Below are positions 26,737-35,735 of a stretch of DNA of 35,995 nt, one piece after another. Every line of letters begins with the position of its first letter. The stretch's first letter is position 1. Origin of the DNA: Candidatus Roizmanbacteria bacterium RIFCSPHIGHO2_02_FULL_37_13b (GTDB taxonomy: Bacteria > Patescibacteriota > Microgenomatia > UBA1406 > HO2-37-13b). The position numbers and the translations under genes are program-made. The stretch covers positions 1 to 35,995 of the forward strand of contig MFZK01000005.1 in assembly GCA_001789395.1 (NCBI GenBank). The letters are read 5' to 3'. The notes beneath the pieces are model-generated. The model saw only the letters and a list, made by a program, of their open reading frames with translations. It had not been told where the DNA came from and did no database searches.

Positions 26737-29412
26737 ATGAAATCAATATATATATTAGTTTTACTCGAGCTAGTGTTACTTTTGAGACCATTCAACGTAG
26801 AGGCAAGTTTAATTAGGTTTGAAAATAATCCAGTAATTGAAAGTTCAGAATGGTACGATATTAATGCAGTTTATTCATCTAGTACGGTATTACATAATGA
26901 TAAATATTATCTTTTTTATAGTGGTTATTTTGGAGGACAATATTCGATTAATCTTGCAGTTTCTCTGGACGGTATTCATTGGACAAAAGAATCCAATAAT
27001 CCGATTTTATTAACTAATACAAGCAATTCATTCATTTGTGAAAAAGGCATACATGATCCAGATGTAATTTTTGACGATTCAGATAATAAATTTAAAATGT
27101 GGTATGTTGCCGATTGTGATCCAAATACAACGGGAATTCCTAGATATTGGATTAAATATGCTGAGTCTAGCGATGGGATTTCATGGACTGTAAGAGATAA
27201 TCCTGTATTATCTCCAACAAACTCATGGGAAATTGAAGGTGTAACATGGCCAACGGTTATTAGACACTTGGACAAGTACCAAATGTGGTTTGCAGGTCGA
27301 AACTCACAAGGATTATGGCAAATCGGATACGCAGAAAGTTCCGACGGAATTTCATGGATAAAAAGAATAACTCCCGTTTTATCGCCCACAGAATCTTGGG
27401 AAGCAAGTGCTATTGGTGGACCGGACATTATTTATGATGGTAATCAGTATGTTCTTTATTATCATAATAGTATTATTTACGCGACATCCAGTGATGGTAT
27501 TACTTGGACAAAACCGTTAGACAATCCCATATTATTAAAACAGCCTAATGAAACATTAATGTGGTCACCTGACGCTGTCGTTACTAAGAATAACTTATTC
27601 ATTTACTACTCAGTTTTAATAAATGGTAAGTGGTCAATATATTTAGCGTCAACCTCACCAATTGTATTTTCTCCCTCCTCCTCCAAAATCATCCTCCTCC
27701 CAGGACTTTTTGGATCTTGGAATCGGGATGCGATTCTGCATAATAAGCCGGCTGGGGTATATGATTGGCAGCTCAACCTAATAGTCCATGATTATGATGG
27801 AATAATTAATTCACTAAAAAATATCGGTCAAGTCGAAAATCAGGATTTCTTTGTTTTTCCATATGATTGGCGAAAAAGCGTTGGGAGTTCCAGTGCTGAT
27901 TTAAATACTTTCATCACAGATAAAATTTCTGACACAAATACCAAAGTAAATCTTGTCGGTCATTCTCTCGGTGGCCTAGTCAGCCGGGTTTACGGTCAGA
28001 AAAATGACTCTGCAATAATAGATAAATTAATTACTGTAGGCTCTCCGCACAGTGGCGCGGCATTGACATATAAAGCTGTTGAAGGTGGCGAGATCGACGG
28101 ATCTTCACCACTTGATTGGCTTGGCAAAAAGTCAATATTAATGATGTACAAAAATAAATTTGAATCTGATCGCAATACTCTTGCCTCGATAGTTCCATCA
28201 CTTCTTGATCTTTTGCCAACTTACGATTATTTGAAAAATAAAGACAATAGCTTCGTTCCTTATGCCGGTATGCAAATTAAGAATAATACCATGATAAATC
28301 TAAATCCTACATTTTCCAATTTATTTAACCAACTTCATACTATCTATGGCGAAAAAGAAGATACTATCTTTGGATATAAGATCAATACCCGCAGTCTGAA
28401 AGACAAGCTGCTTGGCGATTATCCTGATGGCCGCCCCCAGCAGACTCTCTATGATATCGGCGACTCGGTAATTCTCTCAAACAGCGCTCGAGCCGGCAAC
28501 AATCAATATCCTTTATCAAATTTGGATCATGGAGAAATAATAAGAACGAAAACCGGTATTAAACAAATATTTGATATTTTGGGTTTGAACTACAGCGATG
28601 AGCAAATTGTCGAAGGCCAGGAATCTAAAATTAAACCCTCGTCACTCTATCTTTTATTATCTTCGGCAAAAAAGCATTTATCTGTCAGACATAACTCTAA
28701 ACTATATATTGATACTGAAGGCGCATTGTTAATTCCCGATGCCAAATCCGGCCACTATCAACTTGAAATCAATGGTAATGAACCGGATGAATATACGCTT
28801 TCACTTTTGCAAAACGCTGGTGATCAAGATTATTGGGAAACGATTACATCTGCGTTTAACCAGACATTTGAATTTGACTTTGACAGCCAAAAAATCAAAC
28901 CATTTCTCTTAACCCAAGAGAATCCTGCTGCAATATTTGATGATATTTTAAGTGAATTGTCTAAATTATCTAAAGAAAATCCTGATGCTGTCAATATCTA
29001 TAAAAAAGCGCTGGATGCTAAAAAAACATTTCAAAAAAATAACCAAATTCAACTTAAATCACAGCTCGATCAAATTCATCAAATGCTATTTAATCTCATC
29101 AAAAAACAACCGACTAATCAATATAATAGATATTTTGAATTAATTACTAAATTTGAAAATCTGTATCAATCGGTTCTTACTAAGAGTGTGAATAGTTTAT
29201 GCGGCATCAACTCTTGTCTTTTTAATTTGATTAAGGTCAAAAAAATGTTTACCAATTGTGAAGCATCAAAGAAATCTGCTCTCTTTTGCCAGGAAGCAGA
29301 AGAAAAAATGAATCTTCTAACCAAAATTGATACCAAGAAAAGTCCGTTATTAATCCAGATTATGAATCGGTCAATCGAGCAATTGTTAAAACTGGCCGGT
29401 AGCAAAATATAA
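26737..29412 (+). CDS. Secreted multidomain protein: beta-propeller, LCAT-like lipase/acyltransferase, helical tail
   Basis: An 891-residue protein with a signal peptide (about 1-23). Residues about 24-310 hold at least four repeats of the form YA-x-SSDGI-x-WT....P-V/I-L, resembling GH43/GH32-type five-bladed propellers. From about 316 an alpha/beta-hydrolase of the LCAT/lipase type begins (IILLPGLFGSWN). It has FPYDWRKS, the nucleophile elbow GHSLGG with Ser410, GSPHSG, and a likely catalytic His598 in LDHGE. Residues about 730-891 are a charged helical region with four cysteines. The hydrolase presumably acts on lipids or esters outside the cell, with the propeller as a possible glycan-binding part. 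The propeller half appears more AT-rich than the rest, suggesting fusion. Confidence 0.8.
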   Translation: MKSIYILVLLELVLLLRPFNVEASLIRFENNPVIESSEWYDINAVYSSSTVLHNDKYYLFYSGYFGGQYSINLAVSLDGIHWTKESNNPILLTNTSNSFICEKGIHDPDVIFDDSDNKFKMWYVADCDPNTTGIPRYWIKYAESSDGISWTVRDNPVLSPTNSWEIEGVTWPTVIRHLDKYQMWFAGRNSQGLWQIGYAESSDGISWIKRITPVLSPTESWEASAIGGPDIIYDGNQYVLYYHNSIIYATSSDGITWTKPLDNPILLKQPNETLMWSPDAVVTKNNLFIYYSVLINGKWSIYLASTSPIVFSPSSSKIILLPGLFGSWNRDAILHNKPAGVYDWQLNLIVHDYDGIINSLKNIGQVENQDFFVFPYDWRKSVGSSSADLNTFITDKISDTNTKVNLVGHSLGGLVSRVYGQKNDSAIIDKLITVGSPHSGAALTYKAVEGGEIDGSSPLDWLGKKSILMMYKNKFESDRNTLASIVPSLLDLLPTYDYLKNKDNSFVPYAGMQIKNNTMINLNPTFSNLFNQLHTIYGEKEDTIFGYKINTRSLKDKLLGDYPDGRPQQTLYDIGDSVILSNSARAGNNQYPLSNLDHGEIIRTKTGIKQIFDILGLNYSDEQIVEGQESKIKPSSLYLLLSSAKKHLSVRHNSKLYIDTEGALLIPDAKSGHYQLEINGNEPDEYTLSLLQNAGDQDYWETITSAFNQTFEFDFDSQKIKPFLLTQENPAAIFDDILSELSKLSKENPDAVNIYKKALDAKKTFQKNNQIQLKSQLDQIHQMLFNLIKKQPTNQYNRYFELITKFENLYQSVLTKSVNSLCGINSCLFNLIKVKKMFTNCEASKKSALFCQEAEEKMNLLTKIDTKKSPLLIQIMNRSIEQLLKLAGSKI

Positions 29413-29716
29413 CTTAAAATTTTGATCCAGTAACTATTATAAAGTTTGTTTTTTGAATGACTTTAATTTAAAGAAATATAGTAAATACTGGTTGACATAA
29501 ATTTTTATTTATGTCACACTGATATTAATTGCACTTAGACGTGCTTGGGAATCTCAATTATGTTGGTCAAACTTAGGTTTGAATTAAGTTCTAGAGCTTA
29601 TTAATCAGCCGATATTTTATCGGCTGATTTTTTTTATAGGGCTAGAACACCTAACCTACGCCGTTTTTTGGCAAGATTATTAACCTATTGCTTCTGATGA
29701 AAGGAGGTGAAAATAA
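29413..29716 (+). promoter_or_regulatory. Folded leader/intergenic region upstream of the TasA-SipW module
   Basis: This gene-free stretch of 304 bases holds a candidate promoter, TTGAAT (29453-29458) 18 bases before TATAGT (29477-29482). Four foldbacks follow: a perfect 10-pair hairpin at 29493-29516 (arms TGACATAAAT / ATTTATGTCA), GCAC/GTGC at 29531-29544, CAAAC/GTTTG at 29569-29582, and a strong terminator at 29603-29635. GTTCTAG (29588-29594) and CTAGAAC (29642-29648) could form an outer helix around the terminator. It could be an attenuator, a small RNA of about 145 bases, or simply the end of the upstream gene. I match it to no known riboswitch. Confidence 0.45.
29603..29635 (+). terminator. 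Strong intrinsic terminator
   Basis: Arms AATCAGCCGATA and TATCGGCTGATT (12 perfect pairs) with a 3-base loop, followed by a run of eight T (29628-29635). It lies about 190 bases after the lipase stop and 82 bases before the TasA-like start. Confidence 0.9.
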
Positions 29717-30295
29717 ATGAACAGAAAAATATTCGTGAGTTTATTTTCTATTGCTGTTATGGCTGTGATGGTAGGTGCCGTCACTTATGCATACTTTAGT
29801 GATAGTGGGACATCAAGTGGTAATGTATTTTCTACCGGGACTCTAGATTTAAGATTGTCAGATTCTGATCAAAGTGTTCAAGATAGTGTTAGTGCCAGTT
29901 TTGGAAGTACTACACTGGTACCTGGAAGTTGTACTAGTGTTCAAACACTTAATCTACGAAACAGTGGTACAGTCAATGCCAATCATGTCGAAGTCACATT
30001 GGATAACACTGCATCAGATCCAAACATGGCAAAATATTTGAGAATCGCCAGTCTAACTTATGATGGTGTCAATGTACTTGGACAAATAACCTTTGATAAC
30101 GGAAATGGATTTACCGATTTGGAAGATTGGGATCTTGATACTACCGCTCTAGATAATTTAGCGTTAACAAATCTCAATACTAATCACGCCTTAGATCTTA
30201 ATGTATGTCTGGATTCGTCAGCAGGTAATGATTTACAAGGCGATAATGTTACGGCAACATTTACAACAACCTTGAATCAAGATTCAAGTCAATAA
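29717..30295 (+). CDS. TasA/camelysin-like secreted protein with SipW-type signal
   Basis: A 192-residue protein. The N-terminus has a hydrophobic stretch and then AYFSDSGTSSGNVFSTGTLDL, the signature of substrates processed by SipW-type signal peptidases. The rest is a beta-rich domain of the TasA/CalY (M73) type, with the conserved LVPGSCTSVQTLNLRNSGTV segment (about residues 67-86). TasA-like proteins form extracellular fibres. A perfect Shine-Dalgarno AAAGGAGGTGA (29699-29709) points to high expression. The cognate signal peptidase gene follows 71 bases downstream behind a hairpin. Confidence 0.88.
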   Translation: MNRKIFVSLFSIAVMAVMVGAVTYAYFSDSGTSSGNVFSTGTLDLRLSDSDQSVQDSVSASFGSTTLVPGSCTSVQTLNLRNSGTVNANHVEVTLDNTASDPNMAKYLRIASLTYDGVNVLGQITFDNGNGFTDLEDWDLDTTALDNLALTNLNTNHALDLNVCLDSSAGNDLQGDNVTATFTTTLNQDSSQ

Positions 30296-30308
30296 TTTTT
30301 TTTATTTA

Positions 30309-30331
30309 GGGGGGATGAAGTTCATCCCCCC
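30309..30331 (+). other. GC-rich hairpin between the TasA-like and SipW genes
   Basis: Arms GGGGGGATGA and TCATCCCCCC (10 perfect pairs) around a 3-base loop. The T-run lies upstream of the hairpin, not downstream, so it is not a standard terminator on the plus strand. It may protect the 3' end of the tasA-like message and lower read-through into the peptidase gene. This is inference. Confidence 0.6.
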
Positions 30332-30366
30332 AGGGTTATGGGATTAGATCGAACATCGTTATTACT

Positions 30367-30948
30367 ATGAAAAAAATAATTAAATTAAGTTTTCAAACAA
30401 CAATTTTTGTACTTTTTGTCATGACGGCGGCAGTTCTGATCACTGCTAAGACTGACAAAGTCTTCGGAATTCAATCGTTTATCGTCGCCTCGGGAAGTAT
30501 GGAACCTACAATTCCTGTCGGAAGCGTCGTCTTTACTCAGAAAATGGCCAGTTACAAAAAAGGAGATGTCATTGCTTTTAAACAGGGCGATGTATCAGTG
30601 ACTCACCGCATCGTCAAAGTGACAAAAAATAATAGCACTATCAATTATCAAACCAAAGGCGATGCCAATAAAACTGCAGATCAAAATAAGGTTTCAGGTA
30701 AAGAGATAATCGGAAAGCAATTTGCATTTATTCCGCAATTGGGTAAATTTATGGTCTTTGCAAAGACCTTGCCGGGATTCATAATCTTTGTCATCATCCC
30801 GTCGCTTTTTTTTATCTCATTTGAGATGGCTACCGTATTAAGGGAGCTAGATAAACGAAATTTTGTATTGCCTGATCATATGGAAGATCTAAAAAAAATA
30901 AATCTTTATCAATATGTCCGTTACGAACCATATTTTAGAAATGGATAA
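30367..30948 (+). CDS. sipW: SipW-type (archaeal/ER-type) signal peptidase I
   Basis: A 193-residue membrane protease that cleaves signal peptides of TasA-like substrates. Membrane helices lie at about 10-27 and 132-157. The nucleophile Ser44 is in VASGSMEPTI. The general base is His80 (VSVTHRIVKV), in place of the Lys of ordinary bacterial signal peptidase I. TKGDANKTADQNKV supplies Asp99 and Asp105 of the ER-type group. The linkage with a SipW-type substrate upstream and another immediately downstream fixes its role. No clear Shine-Dalgarno is present. Its stop is directly followed by the next ATG. Confidence 0.92.
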   Translation: MKKIIKLSFQTTIFVLFVMTAAVLITAKTDKVFGIQSFIVASGSMEPTIPVGSVVFTQKMASYKKGDVIAFKQGDVSVTHRIVKVTKNNSTINYQTKGDANKTADQNKVSGKEIIGKQFAFIPQLGKFMVFAKTLPGFIIFVIIPSLFFISFEMATVLRELDKRNFVLPDHMEDLKKINLYQYVRYEPYFRNG

Positions 30949-31671
30949 ATGAACAGAAAAATATTATTTTTAATTTTTTTAGTCGCTGCCTTTGGCATCA
31001 TCGCTGCCAAATTTATATTTTCTTTTTTTACTGATACTGCTGTCTCAAGTTCAAATACATTTGCAGCAGCTGCAGAATTCCCGACTCCGATACCGACTAC
31101 CACTCCGACGCCGGGACCGACATCAACTCCGGGACCGACATCAACACCAGGCGTCACTCCAACACCAGGAATCAATGCTGGAGATGTAGTGATAAATGAA
31201 ATTAATTGGAGTAGTGCTGCTGATGAATGGATAGAACTAAGAAACACCACCTCTCACCCCATTGATATTTCTAATTGGGTCATCTTAAATGGAGGGACTG
31301 GTGGTAGTTCTGTCACAATTAATTCTTTCACAATCCCTGCAAACGGATTATTCTTAATGTCTAATAAAGATAAAAGTCAATCAGATATTAATATCGATCC
31401 AGATGAGGTCGACAGCGGTATCAGCTTTGTCGACAGCGGAGAACAGTTGACGTTGCAAACCAATACAGCTACAACAATTGATATAGCAAATGGAATGGGA
31501 GATTGGTTCTTTGGCACAAATAACGCTCCAAAAAAATCTATGGAAAGAAAGGATTCACCAGGCGATGGAACTGTTGGTTCTAATTGGCAGCATGCAACGA
31601 CTCATACTAATATGGACAATAACGGAACTAATGATCCTTATGGCACACCAAAAGCAGTAAATGGAAGTTAA
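30949..31671 (+). CDS. Lamin-tail-domain surface protein with SipW-type signal
   Basis: A 240-residue protein with an N-terminal hydrophobic segment and FSFFTDTAVSSSNTFAAAAE, the SipW-substrate pattern. A Pro/Thr-rich linker (about 45-74) follows, with tandem GPTSTP units. An LTD (lamin tail) domain covers about 77-235 (GDVVINEINWSSAADEWIELRN, IDISNWVI, FTIPANGLFLMSN). LTD domains in bacteria occur on secreted nucleases and surface proteins and probably bind other proteins or DNA. The ATG follows the sipW stop with no gap, so it is co-translated with its presumed peptidase. It is followed by a palindromic repeat pair. Confidence 0.87.
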   Translation: MNRKILFLIFLVAAFGIIAAKFIFSFFTDTAVSSSNTFAAAAEFPTPIPTTTPTPGPTSTPGPTSTPGVTPTPGINAGDVVINEINWSSAADEWIELRNTTSHPIDISNWVILNGGTGGSSVTINSFTIPANGLFLMSNKDKSQSDINIDPDEVDSGISFVDSGEQLTLQTNTATTIDIANGMGDWFFGTNNAPKKSMERKDSPGDGTVGSNWQHATTHTNMDNNGTNDPYGTPKAVNGS

Positions 31672-31683
31672 TTTCGATTAGTT

Positions 31684-31785
31684 TGTCATCGCGAGGCCGA
31701 AGGCCGTGGCGATCTCGTCAAATGTTTTAGATTTGACTAGATTGCTTCGTCCAAATACCAGACGGCTCTGGACCTCGCAATGACA
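31684..31785. repeat. Two palindromic repeat elements facing each other
   Basis: The left copy (31684-31731) reads TGTCATCGCGAGG at its outer end and GATCTCGTCAAATG at its inner end. The right copy, inverted (about 31731-31785), reads CCTCGCAATGACA at its outer end and ATTGCTTCGTCC inside. The pair can fold into one large foldback. It contains an ATG (31780) in frame with the RTX gene that is unlikely to be the true start. Confidence 0.85.
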
Positions 31786-31791
31786 TTAAGT

Positions 31792-32880
31792 ATGAAAAAT
31801 AGAATTATTAGAATAACAATAGGTTTTTTGCTTTTAAGCGGACTGATATTTTTCAATAAGGACAAATTTGATTTTTTAAAACCATCCATTGTCGAGGCAG
31901 TTGGGGACTTAGTCATCAGCTGGGGAGTAGCAGAAGGTAATCCCATATTCAATGTATCAAATATGGCACCGGGACAAAGTGAGCAGCGACAGGTTTCAGT
32001 CCAAAATAATGCATCGACGAGTAGACAAGTCGCTATCCGTGGATTAAAAAAGACAGAAACCGGAGGTTTGGCTCAAGCTTTTACAATTGTAATTAATGAT
32101 GGCACAAATGATCTATATGGCGGTACAAGTCCGACAGGTCCAAAGACTATTCAGCAATTTTTTGATGAAAGTGCTTTTGCCAATGGAATTCCTCTCTCAA
32201 CTTTAGTTTCAGGCGCGACAGTGAATTATAAGATCACGGCAAAGTTCAAAGAGGAATCAGGTAATGAATATCAAAATAAGCAACTTATATTTGATCTGAA
32301 AATCGGTATTAATGTCGATATGCCTCCGGAATGTCTGACAATGGTATTTGACAATGTAATATATGGGACTGAGAAAAAGGATAACTTAAGGGGAGGCCCG
32401 GGGACAAACTTAATCATTGGACTTGGAGGTAATGATTTAATTAATGGCGGGAGCGGTAAAGACTGCATCTTGGGTGGTAATGGCACTGATATTATTTTTG
32501 GCAATGAAAATGATGATGTCATCGATGGCGGAGCCAATAACGATATTTTATATGGCGGTGTCGGAAACGATGTCATCTATGGCGGGCTGGGCATCGACAC
32601 AATAAGAGGCGATGATGGTAATGATAAATTATATGGAGACGCGGCCGCAGATACGATAAATGGATGTAATGGTGATGATACAATCTATGGCGGAATCGGC
32701 GATGATTATATTACCGGAGATATGGGAAATGACACTATCTATGGTGAAGGAGGCAATGACAGGCTTTACGGAAATCCGAATAATGATTATTTGGATGGCG
32801 GAATCGGCAGTAATATCACTCATGGAGGAACAGAAATTGATACCTGCCTAAACGGAACAAAAATCCAGTGTGAGCTGTAG
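31792..32880 (+). CDS. TasA-like/RTX calcium-repeat secreted protein
   Basis: A 362-residue protein with an N-terminal membrane/signal helix (about 4-22). A beta-rich TasA/CalY-like domain (about 38-175) follows, with FNVSNMAPGQSEQRQVSVQNNAS and YQNKQLIFDLKIGI. About fifteen RTX-type nonapeptides (GGxGxDxhx) then run from about 190 to 340, for example GGVGNDVIY and GEGGNDRLY, which fold into a calcium-binding beta-roll. A short Cys-containing tail ends it. RTX proteins usually leave through type I secretion; here the N-terminal hydrophobic segment suggests the Sec route. I use ATG 31792, since ATG 31780 lies in the repeat. Palindromic repeats lie on both sides. Confidence 0.85.
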   Translation: MKNRIIRITIGFLLLSGLIFFNKDKFDFLKPSIVEAVGDLVISWGVAEGNPIFNVSNMAPGQSEQRQVSVQNNASTSRQVAIRGLKKTETGGLAQAFTIVINDGTNDLYGGTSPTGPKTIQQFFDESAFANGIPLSTLVSGATVNYKITAKFKEESGNEYQNKQLIFDLKIGINVDMPPECLTMVFDNVIYGTEKKDNLRGGPGTNLIIGLGGNDLINGGSGKDCILGGNGTDIIFGNENDDVIDGGANNDILYGGVGNDVIYGGLGIDTIRGDDGNDKLYGDAAADTINGCNGDDTIYGGIGDDYITGDMGNDTIYGEGGNDRLYGNPNNDYLDGGIGSNITHGGTEIDTCLNGTKIQCEL

Positions 32881-32886
32881 ATATAT

Positions 32887-32937
32887 TGTCATTGCGAGGA
32901 TCCGCTAACCAGCGGAGACGAAGCAATCGCATCAAAT
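32887..32937. repeat. Palindromic repeat element downstream of the RTX gene
   Basis: TGTCATTGCGAGGATCCGCT, a short GCGG-closed loop, then GACGAAGCAATCGC and ATCAAAT. It is the same family as 31684-31785 and 35856-35897, with a different central hairpin (CCGCT/AGCGG). It starts six bases after the RTX stop. Confidence 0.85.
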
Positions 32938-34201: not shown

Positions 34202-34627
34202 TTATTTCATTAATTTGATGAAATCGCCCGGAGTAATAATAACGATTTTCTTTACAAATTTTGCGACTTCATTTGTTAAGAAATGTTTTCTATCCAATGT
34301 AACTAAATATTGACAGGGACTCTGAATGGCTGCAGCGAGAATTGGAGCATCTTTATTGTAAATAACTTTTTCACATAGCTCTATTAATTCCGGTAAGGGT
34401 TCATCAATTACTCCCAATTTAGCGTATTGTAAATAAATTTTAAAAATTTTCTTATGATCATCTTTTAATTTAAAATTAATATTCTTTTTTGCCTCTCCAA
34501 TTACATCCCTCGAGATATAACCTTTTATTAATCCTTTTCTACTTAATCCAAGAAGATATGCAGAAGCTCCCTTAGTTGACACACATGCAGCAACTAAAAC
34601 TGAAGAATCAATAAATACTGATTTCAT
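34202..34627 (-). CDS. PIN-domain toxin (VapC-like ribonuclease)
   Basis: A 141-residue PIN-domain protein. The four acidic positions expected for metal-dependent RNA cleavage are Asp7 (VFIDSSVL), Glu45 (VIGEAKKN), Asp93 (NKDAPILAAA) and Asp112 (VTLDRKHF). It is paired with an AbrB-type antitoxin gene upstream, overlapping by ATGA (34624-34627). I start at ATG 34627; an upstream TTG adds only five residues. Targets of such toxins are usually tRNA or rRNA; the target here is unknown. Confidence 0.87.
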   Translation of the reverse strand: MKSVFIDSSVLVAACVSTKGASAYLLGLSRKGLIKGYISRDVIGEAKKNINFKLKDDHKKIFKIYLQYAKLGVIDEPLPELIELCEKVIYNKDAPILAAAIQSPCQYLVTLDRKHFLTNEVAKFVKKIVIITPGDFIKLMK

Positions 34628-34896
34628 ATCAAATCTGACCAAATAGACTGTGCTTCTATAGCTTTATTTTTAGGGAGTTTATCTTCTTCAAGTATTTTTT
34701 TAAATTCTTTATCGTCATAAACTTCATAATCAACAGTATCTCTCGCTTCAATAATCAATCGCTTTCCTACTTTTTTGATTCTTGCTACTTCACCTTCTTT
34801 AATACCTAAGGCATCGCGAAATGATTTTGGAATTGTGACCATGCCTTTTGATAATATTTTAACCCATTCTGTTTGAGTTTGACTTGTGGTAACCAT
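34624..34896 (-). CDS. AbrB/SpoVT-family antitoxin
   Basis: A 90-residue protein with an N-terminal swapped-hairpin DNA-binding domain (about 10-52: VKILSKGMVTIPKSFRDALGIKEGEVARIKKVGKRLIIEA). The acidic C-terminal tail (53-90) should wrap around and neutralise the PIN toxin. The start at ATG 34896 gives the typical AbrB N-terminus; the longer frame begins at a TTG inside the promoter. It is likely to repress its own promoter, where two TTAACTTT copies lie. Confidence 0.87.
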   Translation of the reverse strand: MVTTSQTQTEWVKILSKGMVTIPKSFRDALGIKEGEVARIKKVGKRLIIEARDTVDYEVYDDKEFKKILEEDKLPKNKAIEAQSIWSDLI

Positions 34897-34915
34897 AGTT
34901 TGAAATGTCAACTTA

Positions 34916-34956
34916 TTAACTTTCAATATTATAGATAAAAAGTTAACTTTATTCAA
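34916..34956 (-). promoter_or_regulatory. Promoter/operator of the AbrB-PIN pair
   Basis: On the minus strand, -35 TTGAAT (34951-34956), a 17-base spacer, and -10 TATAAT (34928-34933). AAAGTTAA occurs on the same strand in the spacer (34943-34950) and over the expected start (34916-34923), suitable as an AbrB-type operator. Confidence 0.6.
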
Positions 34957-35113: not shown

Positions 35114-35374
35114 TCATTTTTTCGCAAATGCCTTTGTGATTTCATCATTTGTAAAACCAAGTCGTTTAAGTTGAGTTAGATAACCTGATACAGTTGGCGG
35201 AAAATACTGCTTTCTACCATGAACTACTTCTATAAATGGTCGCAATCCATCTGGTACTATTTTACTACTCGGTACATTATATTTTTGATGACTTGTTCCA
35301 CACTGCTTTTCAGGAGTAAATCCTAAATTGGTTAATGCTTTACACAGTTGTACTGTTCCAAATGTTATTCTCAT
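35114..35374 (-). CDS. hicA: HicA-like mRNA interferase toxin
   Basis: An 86-residue small basic protein. GTSHQKY (His29) sits where HicA toxins carry the catalytic His of the dsRBD-like fold. The N-terminal helix LCKALTNLGFTPEKQ and the VHGRKQYFPPTVSGYLTQLKRLGFTNDEI C-terminus fit the family. It overlaps hicB by 4 bases (ATGA). The order antitoxin first, toxin second is found in many HicBA pairs. It would cleave mRNA when free of HicB. Confidence 0.75.
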   Translation of the reverse strand: MRITFGTVQLCKALTNLGFTPEKQCGTSHQKYNVPSSKIVPDGLRPFIEVVHGRKQYFPPTVSGYLTQLKRLGFTNDEITKAFAKK

Positions 35375-35670
35375 GAAAACAAATACTTTCCAATAGAATC
35401 AGGAGTAGAATAGATGAGTAGCCTCTTTATATTTTCAAATTCTTTATCTTTATTTTCTTTTAAATAACGAATTTTACCTTGATATTCTTTTGGAACTTCA
35501 AATAAATCATAAATAAGATCATTAATCATTTCTTCAAGCTCCAATTCAGTATCAGCCTCTGTGAATACATCATACTCACTTAGTTTAGCAAAATAACCAC
35601 TTCCGTCCTTATGACGCATAATATTTACTTTGATTGTTTTTGGAAGATAAGGAAATTGAGCGATTTTCAT
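35371..35670 (-). CDS. hicB: HicB-like antitoxin
   Basis: A 99-residue protein. The partial RNase H-like fold of HicB is recognisable from an N-terminal strand pair, DGSGYFAKLSEYDVFTEADTELELEEMINDLIYDLF, where the usual form is DGGYVAxFPDLPG..GDTLEEAxxNA. A C-terminal DNA-binding domain is not obvious. I choose ATG 35670 over the upstream TTG at 35706, since the TTG lies inside an operator-like palindrome. It is paired with hicA by a 4-base overlap. Confidence 0.7.
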   Translation of the reverse strand: MKIAQFPYLPKTIKVNIMRHKDGSGYFAKLSEYDVFTEADTELELEEMINDLIYDLFEVPKEYQGKIRYLKENKDKEFENIKRLLIYSTPDSIGKYLFS

Positions 35671-35683
35671 AATTTTAAGAGCT

Positions 35684-35735
35684 TTGTAACAATCTAATTG
35701 TATCAAATATAATGAATGATAACAAGCTATAACAA
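35684..35735 (-). promoter_or_regulatory. hicBA promoter with palindromic operator
   Basis: On the minus strand, TTGTTA (35730-35735), an 18-base spacer and TATATT (35706-35711). An imperfect palindrome, TTGTAACAAT and ATTGTATCAA around CTA, lies at 35684-35706, just downstream, covering the likely start. This is the usual layout of an autorepressed toxin-antitoxin operon. Confidence 0.5.

What the first reader, a model, noticed from the sequence alone, without database searches (positions are those of the whole stretch)
29717..32880. A self-contained fibre/matrix module with its own signal peptidase
The cluster holds a TasA/camelysin-like protein, a Ser/His signal peptidase of the SipW type, a lamin-tail protein with the same AYFSD-like signal pattern, and a TasA-like/RTX protein. 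In Bacillus, SipW and TasA build biofilm fibres. The combination with an LTD adaptor and a calcium-binding beta-roll partner is not an arrangement I recognise. In a presumed CPR organism it could make attachment fibres to a host cell: TasA-like polymer, LTD adaptor, calcium-dependent tip or coat.
Basis: partly seen in the sequence, partly recalled or inferred. Interest (0 to 1): 0.75.

Follow-up and report, generated by a model that had tools for sequence, protein, structure and literature searches.

The report
Surface-fibre operon of ultrasmall bacteria
Four neighbouring genes in an uncultured ultrasmall bacterium look like a kit for building a protein fibre on the cell surface, and related bacteria keep the same kit, sometimes with the cutting enzyme joined to the fibre part it is expected to cut.

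Summary
In detail: 29717-32880 encodes a TasA/camelysin-like protein, a Ser-His signal peptidase (SipW/archaeal type), a lamin-tail (LTD) protein and a TasA-like domain with an RTX tail. It is a conserved operon. In 80 named peptidase loci, TasA, peptidase, LTD and gene 4 occur together in 20 of 44 CPR loci and 0 of 36 others; 116 CPR loci hold 41 complete unfused runs. Gene 1 and the gene-4 N-domain match TasA structures. A TasA-type N-terminal motif is in 38 of 56 LTD proteins but 1 of 75 gene-4 proteins. I infer a donor-strand fibre: TasA polymer, donor-only LTD protein at one end (works like TapA), acceptor-only gene 4 at the other. The gene-4 tail is exchangeable (membrane helices, RTX or LTD), so RTX is a local variant and gene 4 more likely base than tip. 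In 14 loci the peptidase is fused to its presumed substrate, often with the cleavage motif kept. Fibre, polarity, calcium and host attachment are untested. Paper listings seen showed nothing on this operon in CPR.

The parts
29603..29629 (+). intrinsic-terminator-like hairpin plus T-run between the upstream lipase-like gene and the module
   Evidence: 12 pairs, loop 3, TTTTTT tail; 4 such sites found against 3.8 expected from shuffles, so the class alone is not significant
29717..30295 (+). gene 1: TasA/camelysin-like protein, presumed fibre subunit; SipW-type signal, free N-terminal segment about residues 26-44, beta-sandwich from residue 45
30309..30331 (+). 10-bp stem directly after gene 1; stem-loops at the same place in six of nine relatives folded
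   Evidence: the window's own z is only -1.43
30367..30948 (+). gene 2: Ser-His signal peptidase of the archaeal/SipW type
30496..30498 (+). presumed catalytic Ser44 codon (GSMEP)
   Evidence: sequence; invariant
30604..30606 (+). presumed catalytic His80 codon (THR)
   Evidence: sequence; invariant
30949..31671 (+). gene 3: lamin-tail protein with TasA-like N-terminus (FFTDTAVSSSNTF) and Pro/Thr linker; LTD at residues 76-178
31685..31784 (.). inverted pair of a genome-wide REP-like repeat between gene 3 and gene 4
31792..32880 (+). gene 4: ordinary-type signal, TasA-like beta-sandwich (about residues 31-177) without the N-terminal donor segment, RTX beta-roll (about residues 185-362)

Best explanation
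A SipW-dependent donor-strand fibre operon of Patescibacteria (CPR). Gene 2 removes the special signal peptides of gene 1 and gene 3, freeing an N-terminal strand. TasA-like gene 1 polymerises by inserting that strand into the next subunit. Gene 3 has the donor strand but, instead of a TasA domain, an LTD that should already be a complete Ig-like fold, so it can only sit at one end and start or cap the fibre: it works like TapA. Gene 4 has the TasA-like acceptor domain but no donor strand, so it can only sit at the other end. Its C-terminal module (membrane helices in most typed relatives, RTX or LTD here and in close ones) ties that end to the membrane or surface layer. Shown: gene identity, conserved order, predicted folds, donor-motif asymmetry, tail exchange, peptidase-substrate fusions. 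Inferred: cleavage, polymerisation, polarity, anchoring.
For: Conserved order: one search has 57 rows; setting aside L068, L069, L072 (another cluster type) and L055, L056 (cut at contig ends) leaves 52, by my count of its table: LTD between peptidase and gene 4 or fused to the peptidase in 39; peptidase adjacent or fused in 50 (counting L130, whose peptidase ORF was recovered only, and L151). Named loci: all together in 20 of 44 CPR against 0 of 36 others (Fisher p = 6e-7). Pfam LTD in the gene after, or fused to, the peptidase: 28 of 42 CPR, 0 of 23 others. Spacing: 41 full unfused runs in 116 loci, peptidase-LTD median -4 nt, LTD-gene 4 median 1 nt. Folds: gene 1 best Foldseek match is the TasA fibre 8aur, E 3.6e-4; VIA Z 9.5 / 9.2 / 9.0 to 5of2, 5of1, 8aur. 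Gene-4 N-domain: 5of1 Z 10.7 (rmsd 2.7, 126 residues), 8aur Z 10.5. Gene-1 profile against PDB: 5of1 E 7.7e-11. hhalign gene 1 against gene 4: probability 98.7, E 1.7e-16, gap in gene 4 at YAYFSDSGTSSG. Donor motif: gene 1 135/140 (partly circular), LTD 38/56, gene 4 1/75, other hydrophobic N-termini 5/225. Fusions with the motif or a remnant. One relative's gene 3 (L177) has a TapA domain (TIGR04087 E 2.2e-21, 76.3 bits, cut-off 80) plus laminin-G-like and LTD domains. Donor-strand fibre and TapA role: passages of PMC9674648 and PMC10151520.
Against: No fibre has been shown. Gene 1 is only 15-18% identical to TasA in the structural alignments, its model is moderate (pLDDT 76.7, residues 27-39 under 50), and in the window the LTD motif is weak. 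The module is patchy: gene 4 in 12 of 96 relatives by single-sequence search and in 49 of 380 of the phylum by profile; 24 of the 44 named CPR peptidase loci lack part of it; same-family genomes have TasA and peptidase without LTD or gene 4 (L074, L076, L079); L127 and L133 have gene 4 without a recognised peptidase. 18 of 56 LTD proteins miss the motif at E < 0.01. Gene 4 does not match Pfam M73 nor TasA by sequence profile. RTX and LTD tails have no membrane helix, so anchoring there is a guess.
Confidence: 0.6

Rival explanations
1. One reading: TasA polymer, LTD as adaptor, calcium-bound RTX protein as tip or coat that touches the host.
For: Gene 4 here and in several related loci ends in an RTX beta-roll (window model pLDDT 90.6; best structural match the calcium-dependent 3p4g, Z 17.9) and has no C-terminal membrane helix.
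Against: Among 65 loci with a typed tail 48 have membrane helices, 12 RTX and 5 LTD (46 of 111 rows untyped or without gene 4), which suits a base. Gene 3 proteins carry extra lectin-like or carbohydrate-binding domains in some relatives.
Confidence: 0.18
2. A secreted, non-fibrous surface coat: the peptidase simply exports a set of small beta-sandwich proteins; LTD binds extracellular DNA or glycan for nutrient capture.
For: Four of 42 gene-3 proteins hit the first part of the ExeM extracellular nuclease model through their LTD region, far below its cut-off; CalY of B. cereus is described as a surface adhesin as well as a fibre protein (passage of PMC13082335).
Against: Donor-motif asymmetry between gene 3 and gene 4; the TasA fibre is the only Foldseek match under 0.001 for gene 1. 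No nuclease domain is among the 11 Pfam families tallied for 42 gene-3 or fused proteins.
Confidence: 0.17
3. Unrelated secreted neighbours thrown together in this one genome.
For: In the window a REP-like repeat separates gene 4 from gene 3.
Against: Same order in dozens of loci, overlapping genes, and fusions.
Confidence: 0.02

Closest known systems
Bacillus subtilis tapA-sipW-tasA operon
   Same: TasA-fold fibre subunit, dedicated signal peptidase, a third protein with a TasA-like N-terminus and its own Ig-like fold (passages)
   Different: Third protein is LTD instead of TapA (one relative, L177, has both domains); a fourth, acceptor-only TasA-like protein with exchangeable tails; gene order differs; peptidase fused to substrate in some relatives
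Bacillus cereus sipW-tasA / calY / CapP (BC1280)
   Same: TasA paralogues and a chaperone-like accessory protein near SipW (passages of PMC13082335)
   Different: No LTD, RTX or membrane-helix tail is mentioned in the passages seen
Archaeal bundling pili (Pyrobaculum, 7ueg) and AbpX (9sj2; archaeal by recall)
   Same: Archaeal donor-strand fibres, some related to TasA (as stated in PMC9674648); gene-1 profile hits AbpX, E 1.4e-5; 7ueg Z 5.8
   Different: LTD and gene 4 were not sought beside these pili; Z 5.8 is in the range of chance
Clostridium perfringens BsaA-SipW matrix
   Same: SipW-dependent matrix protein; one Saccharibacteria gene next to a peptidase (L197) hits TIGR04090 below its cut-off, 28.7 against 60 bits
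   Different: Known to me from a search listing and abstract start only

Membership tests
TasA/camelysin (PF12389, gene 1) | Pfam gathering score | tested here: met
   35.3 against 22.5 bits
TasA/camelysin (PF12389, gene 1) | SipW-type signal peptide | tested here: met
   TIGR04088 28.2 against 19 bits; the only match found in the genome at E <= 10
TasA/camelysin (PF12389, gene 1) | TasA jelly-roll fold | tested here: met
   predicted model; 8aur E 3.6e-4; 5of2 Z 9.5
TasA/camelysin (PF12389, gene 1) | forms donor-strand fibres | not testable with these tools
   needs protein and microscopy
Bacillus SipW equivalog (NF046067, gene 2) | curated score | tested here: not met
   114 against 190 bits
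Archaeal/ER-type signal peptidase I (TIGR02228, gene 2) | curated score and Ser-His pair | tested here: met
   98.6 against 51.85 bits; Ser44/His80 invariant; activity not tested
Lamin tail domain PF00932 (gene 3) | Pfam gathering score | tested here: met
   39.4 against 34.3 bits
TapA (TIGR04087, gene 3) | curated score | tested here: not met
   window gene 3 no match at E <= 1; one of 42 CPR gene-3 or fused proteins matches: L177, 76.3 against 80 bits
TasA/camelysin (PF12389, gene 4) | Pfam gathering score | tested here: not met
   no PF12389 row for gene 4; the predicted fold matches 5of1 Z 10.7
RTX repeat protein (PF00353, gene 4) | nonapeptide repeats | tested here: met
   127.3 bits, 8 stretches; beta-roll model
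RTX repeat protein (PF00353, gene 4) | calcium binding | not testable with these tools
   needs binding assay
RTX repeat protein (PF00353, gene 4) | type I secretion | not tested
   gene 4 has an N-terminal signal instead; no search for a type I system was made

The most novel reading that the evidence does not exclude
The peptidase-substrate fusions are self-processing: the fused donor-LTD segment stays in the membrane beside its own peptidase, is cut in cis and starts the TasA fibre on the spot, so the peptidase doubles as assembly platform; the resulting fibre is a second, type-IV-pilus-independent attachment organelle of CPR bacteria and could be part of the pili-like appendages seen on ultrasmall groundwater cells.
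Probability: 0.25. Interest if true: 0.85.

Novelty: new variant of a known kind. Interest (0 to 1): 0.7.

Why it matters
How CPR bacteria hold on to hosts is largely open. Pili-like appendages between ultrasmall groundwater cells and hosts have been imaged (passages of PMC7906910), and type IV pili have been proposed for host binding (PMC12206443, start of abstract only). This module gives a second, genetically defined candidate that occurs in records named Levybacteria, Roizmanbacteria, Chisholmbacteria, Moranbacteria, Nomurabacteria, Kaiserbacteria, Berkelbacteria and others, with two distinct end proteins that make polarity testable. Signal peptidases fused to their presumed substrates would be an unusual way to couple export to assembly.

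Tried and rejected
Lipase-like upstream gene (26737-29412) as a fifth member: rejected as a conserved part. It occurs in 48 of 96 relatives; comparing places, it lies by the module only in G000, G024, G034 and G082 (G019 about 7 kb away), otherwise on another contig or far off; a terminator-like hairpin separates it here.

Gene 4 as SipW substrate: 0 of 21 hit TIGR04088 and 1 of 75 the donor profile.

Camelysin protease activity for gene 1: no HExxH in the sequence; not pursued.

Gene 4 against PDB by sequence profile: RTX proteins and weak rows, no TasA among the 14; the TasA link rests on structure and profile-profile comparison.

TapA entries were not among the rows shown; that excludes nothing.

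Tree of the peptidase: fewest changes 11 for fused/separate and 5 for tail type, but 55 of 108 inner branches are open, so the number of independent fusions is not settled. There I set L163 and L170 to fused by hand (their hydrophobic stretch fell under my hydropathy cut-off) and removed L081 (not a peptidase of this kind). L115, fused by eye, was left as separate; L223 counted as fused though no motif or LTD was recognised in its extension. L155 was typed 'none' for its tail although its alignment shows RTX-like repeats.

The profiles used were built from CPR or mostly CPR sequences, so they are less sensitive elsewhere; the Pfam LTD comparison does not share this fault.

Paper listings were mostly cut: 25 of 213, 20 of 111, 25 of 31, 12 of 344, 15 of 272; complete.
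Full report
WHAT IS THERE. The window is contig C5 of a 1.16-Mb, 93% complete genome. From 29717 to 32880 four genes run on the + strand: a TasA/camelysin-like protein, a signal peptidase, an LTD protein and a TasA-like/RTX protein, recognised by curated models except for the TasA-like part of gene 4. The genome has one other S26 peptidase, with a far stronger PF10502 score (E 1.8e-48 against 1.0e-6), so gene 2 is an extra, Ser-His enzyme. Only gene 1 matches the SipW-signal model genome-wide; gene 3 has key residues in the same register (F27, D29, N36, F38) but scores weakly (E 0.014).

WHO THE ORGANISM IS. The best named matches to the peptidase are Levybacteria/Levyibacteriota and Roizmanbacteria records and one titled only Patescibacteria, so the genome is taken to be a Microgenomates-type CPR bacterium; no formal placement was made.

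IS IT A MODULE. Searching 96 relatives gave gene 4 in 12 and the peptidase in 35 genomes. Of the 12 with gene 4, 10 have the peptidase just upstream on the same strand; in the other two (G006, G049) gene 4 reaches a contig end. A profile search of 380 genomes of the phylum found gene 4 in 49; I fetched 40 regions (39 genomes) from that list. Order table. In 80 named loci chosen by peptidase similarity, LTD follows or is fused in 26 of 44 CPR and 0 of 36 others, a gene-4-like domain follows in 26 and 2, TasA lies upstream in 39 and 11, and all three in 20 and 0 (Fisher p 1.4e-9 for LTD). This sample is centred on the window's peptidase and says nothing about all bacteria. A second cluster type (TasA, peptidase, about 190 aa, often a second peptidase), without LTD and without a tailed gene 4, is common in the same order. 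In 41 full unfused runs of 116 loci, the peptidase-LTD and LTD-gene 4 junctions mostly overlap or touch (at most 20 nt in 34 and 36 of 41), while TasA stands off by a median of 72 nt. Of ten such gaps folded (some only in part), the window, L046, L048, L049, L153, L155 and L157 show a strong stem-loop, L047 not clearly, L050 and L154 none; L153, L155 and L157 share a stem sequence, the others differ; the window's z is only -1.43. I read this as a way to make more TasA than the rest; that is inference.

FOLDS. Gene 1 (17-row alignment, pLDDT 76.7) has a hydrophobic helix, a low-confidence stretch without strands to residue 44 and a beta-sandwich. Its only Foldseek match under 0.001 is the TasA fibre 8aur; VIA ranks the three TasA entries first, Z 9.0-9.5 against 7.0 for the next. 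Gene 4 (21 rows, pLDDT 90.6) has a beta-sandwich and a long beta-roll; the sandwich matches TasA (5of1 Z 10.7, 8aur 10.5, 5of2 10.4), the roll RTX and calcium-dependent folds (3p4g Z 17.9). Profile comparison of the two families: probability 98.7, E 1.7e-16, with gene 4 aligned as a gap at YAYFSDSGTSSG.

MECHANISM. In B. subtilis the N-terminal strand of each TasA completes the next subunit; TapA has a very similar N-terminus, a complete Ig fold, and can only start a filament (passages of PMC9674648 and PMC10151520). A profile of the gene-1 N-terminus finds this segment in 38 of 56 LTD proteins, 1 of 75 gene-4 proteins and 5 of 225 other proteins with hydrophobic N-termini (gene 1 itself, 135 of 140, is partly circular). 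So gene 3 looks donor-only and gene 4 acceptor-only, which fixes them to opposite ends if the module polymerises like TasA. One relative's gene 3 (L177) joins a TapA-like domain, a laminin-G-like domain and an LTD; L161 has a DNRLRE domain, and CBM96 and laminin-G-like matches occur in one each of 42. That favours gene 3 as the variable, outward-facing end. Gene 4 tails: among 65 typed loci 48 have membrane helices by hydropathy, 12 RTX, 5 LTD, which favours gene 4 as the cell-side end.

FUSIONS. In L051, L054, L071, L073, L114, L116, L117, L118, L119, L120, L131, L163, L166 and L170 the peptidase continues in frame through a hydrophobic stretch into the gene-3-like part. The motif is clear in some (NAFAYFSDTETSTGN in L114, TFAFFSDSETSTGN in L117; TIGR04088 over its cut-off inside L163 and L170, just under in L166) and only a remnant in others (such as L054, L071, L073, L131). 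An LTD was recognised in L051, L054, L071, L073, L114, L116, L118, L119 and L131, not in L117, L120, L163, L166 or L170. L151 has peptidase and gene 4 in one frame. This ties the peptidase physically to its presumed substrate.

WHAT IS NEW. Searches for TasA, SipW, camelysin or lamin tail domain together with CPR names (open-licence library, most listings cut) showed no paper describing this operon; one paper mentions an LTD protein beside a CRISPR locus in Roizmanbacteria (passage of PMC6509639). It is a variant of the TasA/SipW kind, with two new end proteins and peptidase-substrate fusions.

LIMITS. No experiment; no complex prediction; patchy distribution; the window's own gene 3 motif is weak and its gene 4 is set off by a repeat element.

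Noticed in passing
window 31685-31784 and 32888-32899: REP-like palindromic repeat (GTCATTGCGAGG), 20 copies with at most one mismatch in the genome against 3 for the reversed control; an inverted pair sits between gene 3 and gene 4 and one copy follows gene 4.
   Followed up: partly
window 26737-29412: Large secreted-looking protein with a GH32/GH130-like propeller part and an LCAT/PGAP1-type lipase part; in 48 of 96 relatives, mostly away from the TasA module.
   Followed up: partly
L057-L063, L065-L070: A different cluster in related genomes: TasA, peptidase, an about 190-aa protein without a Pfam match over cut-off in six tested, often a second peptidase.
   Followed up: partly
L153, L154, L157, L166 and window gene 4 C-terminus: RTX-tailed gene 4 proteins share paired cysteines near the end (DTC...CEL/CEI), perhaps a disulphide cap.
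   Followed up: no
G000:C10:4146-4850: Another protein of the genome carries two LTD matches.
   Followed up: no
window 34202-34956 and 35114-35706: Two pairs of small minus-strand ORFs that look like toxin-antitoxin pairs (PIN/AbrB-like and HicA/HicB-like by eye and recall); no family search was made.
   Followed up: no
L187 and L197 (Saccharibacteria): SipW-type signal proteins next to a peptidase, one with a sub-cut-off BsaA match, hinting at related matrix systems in Saccharibacteria.
   Followed up: no
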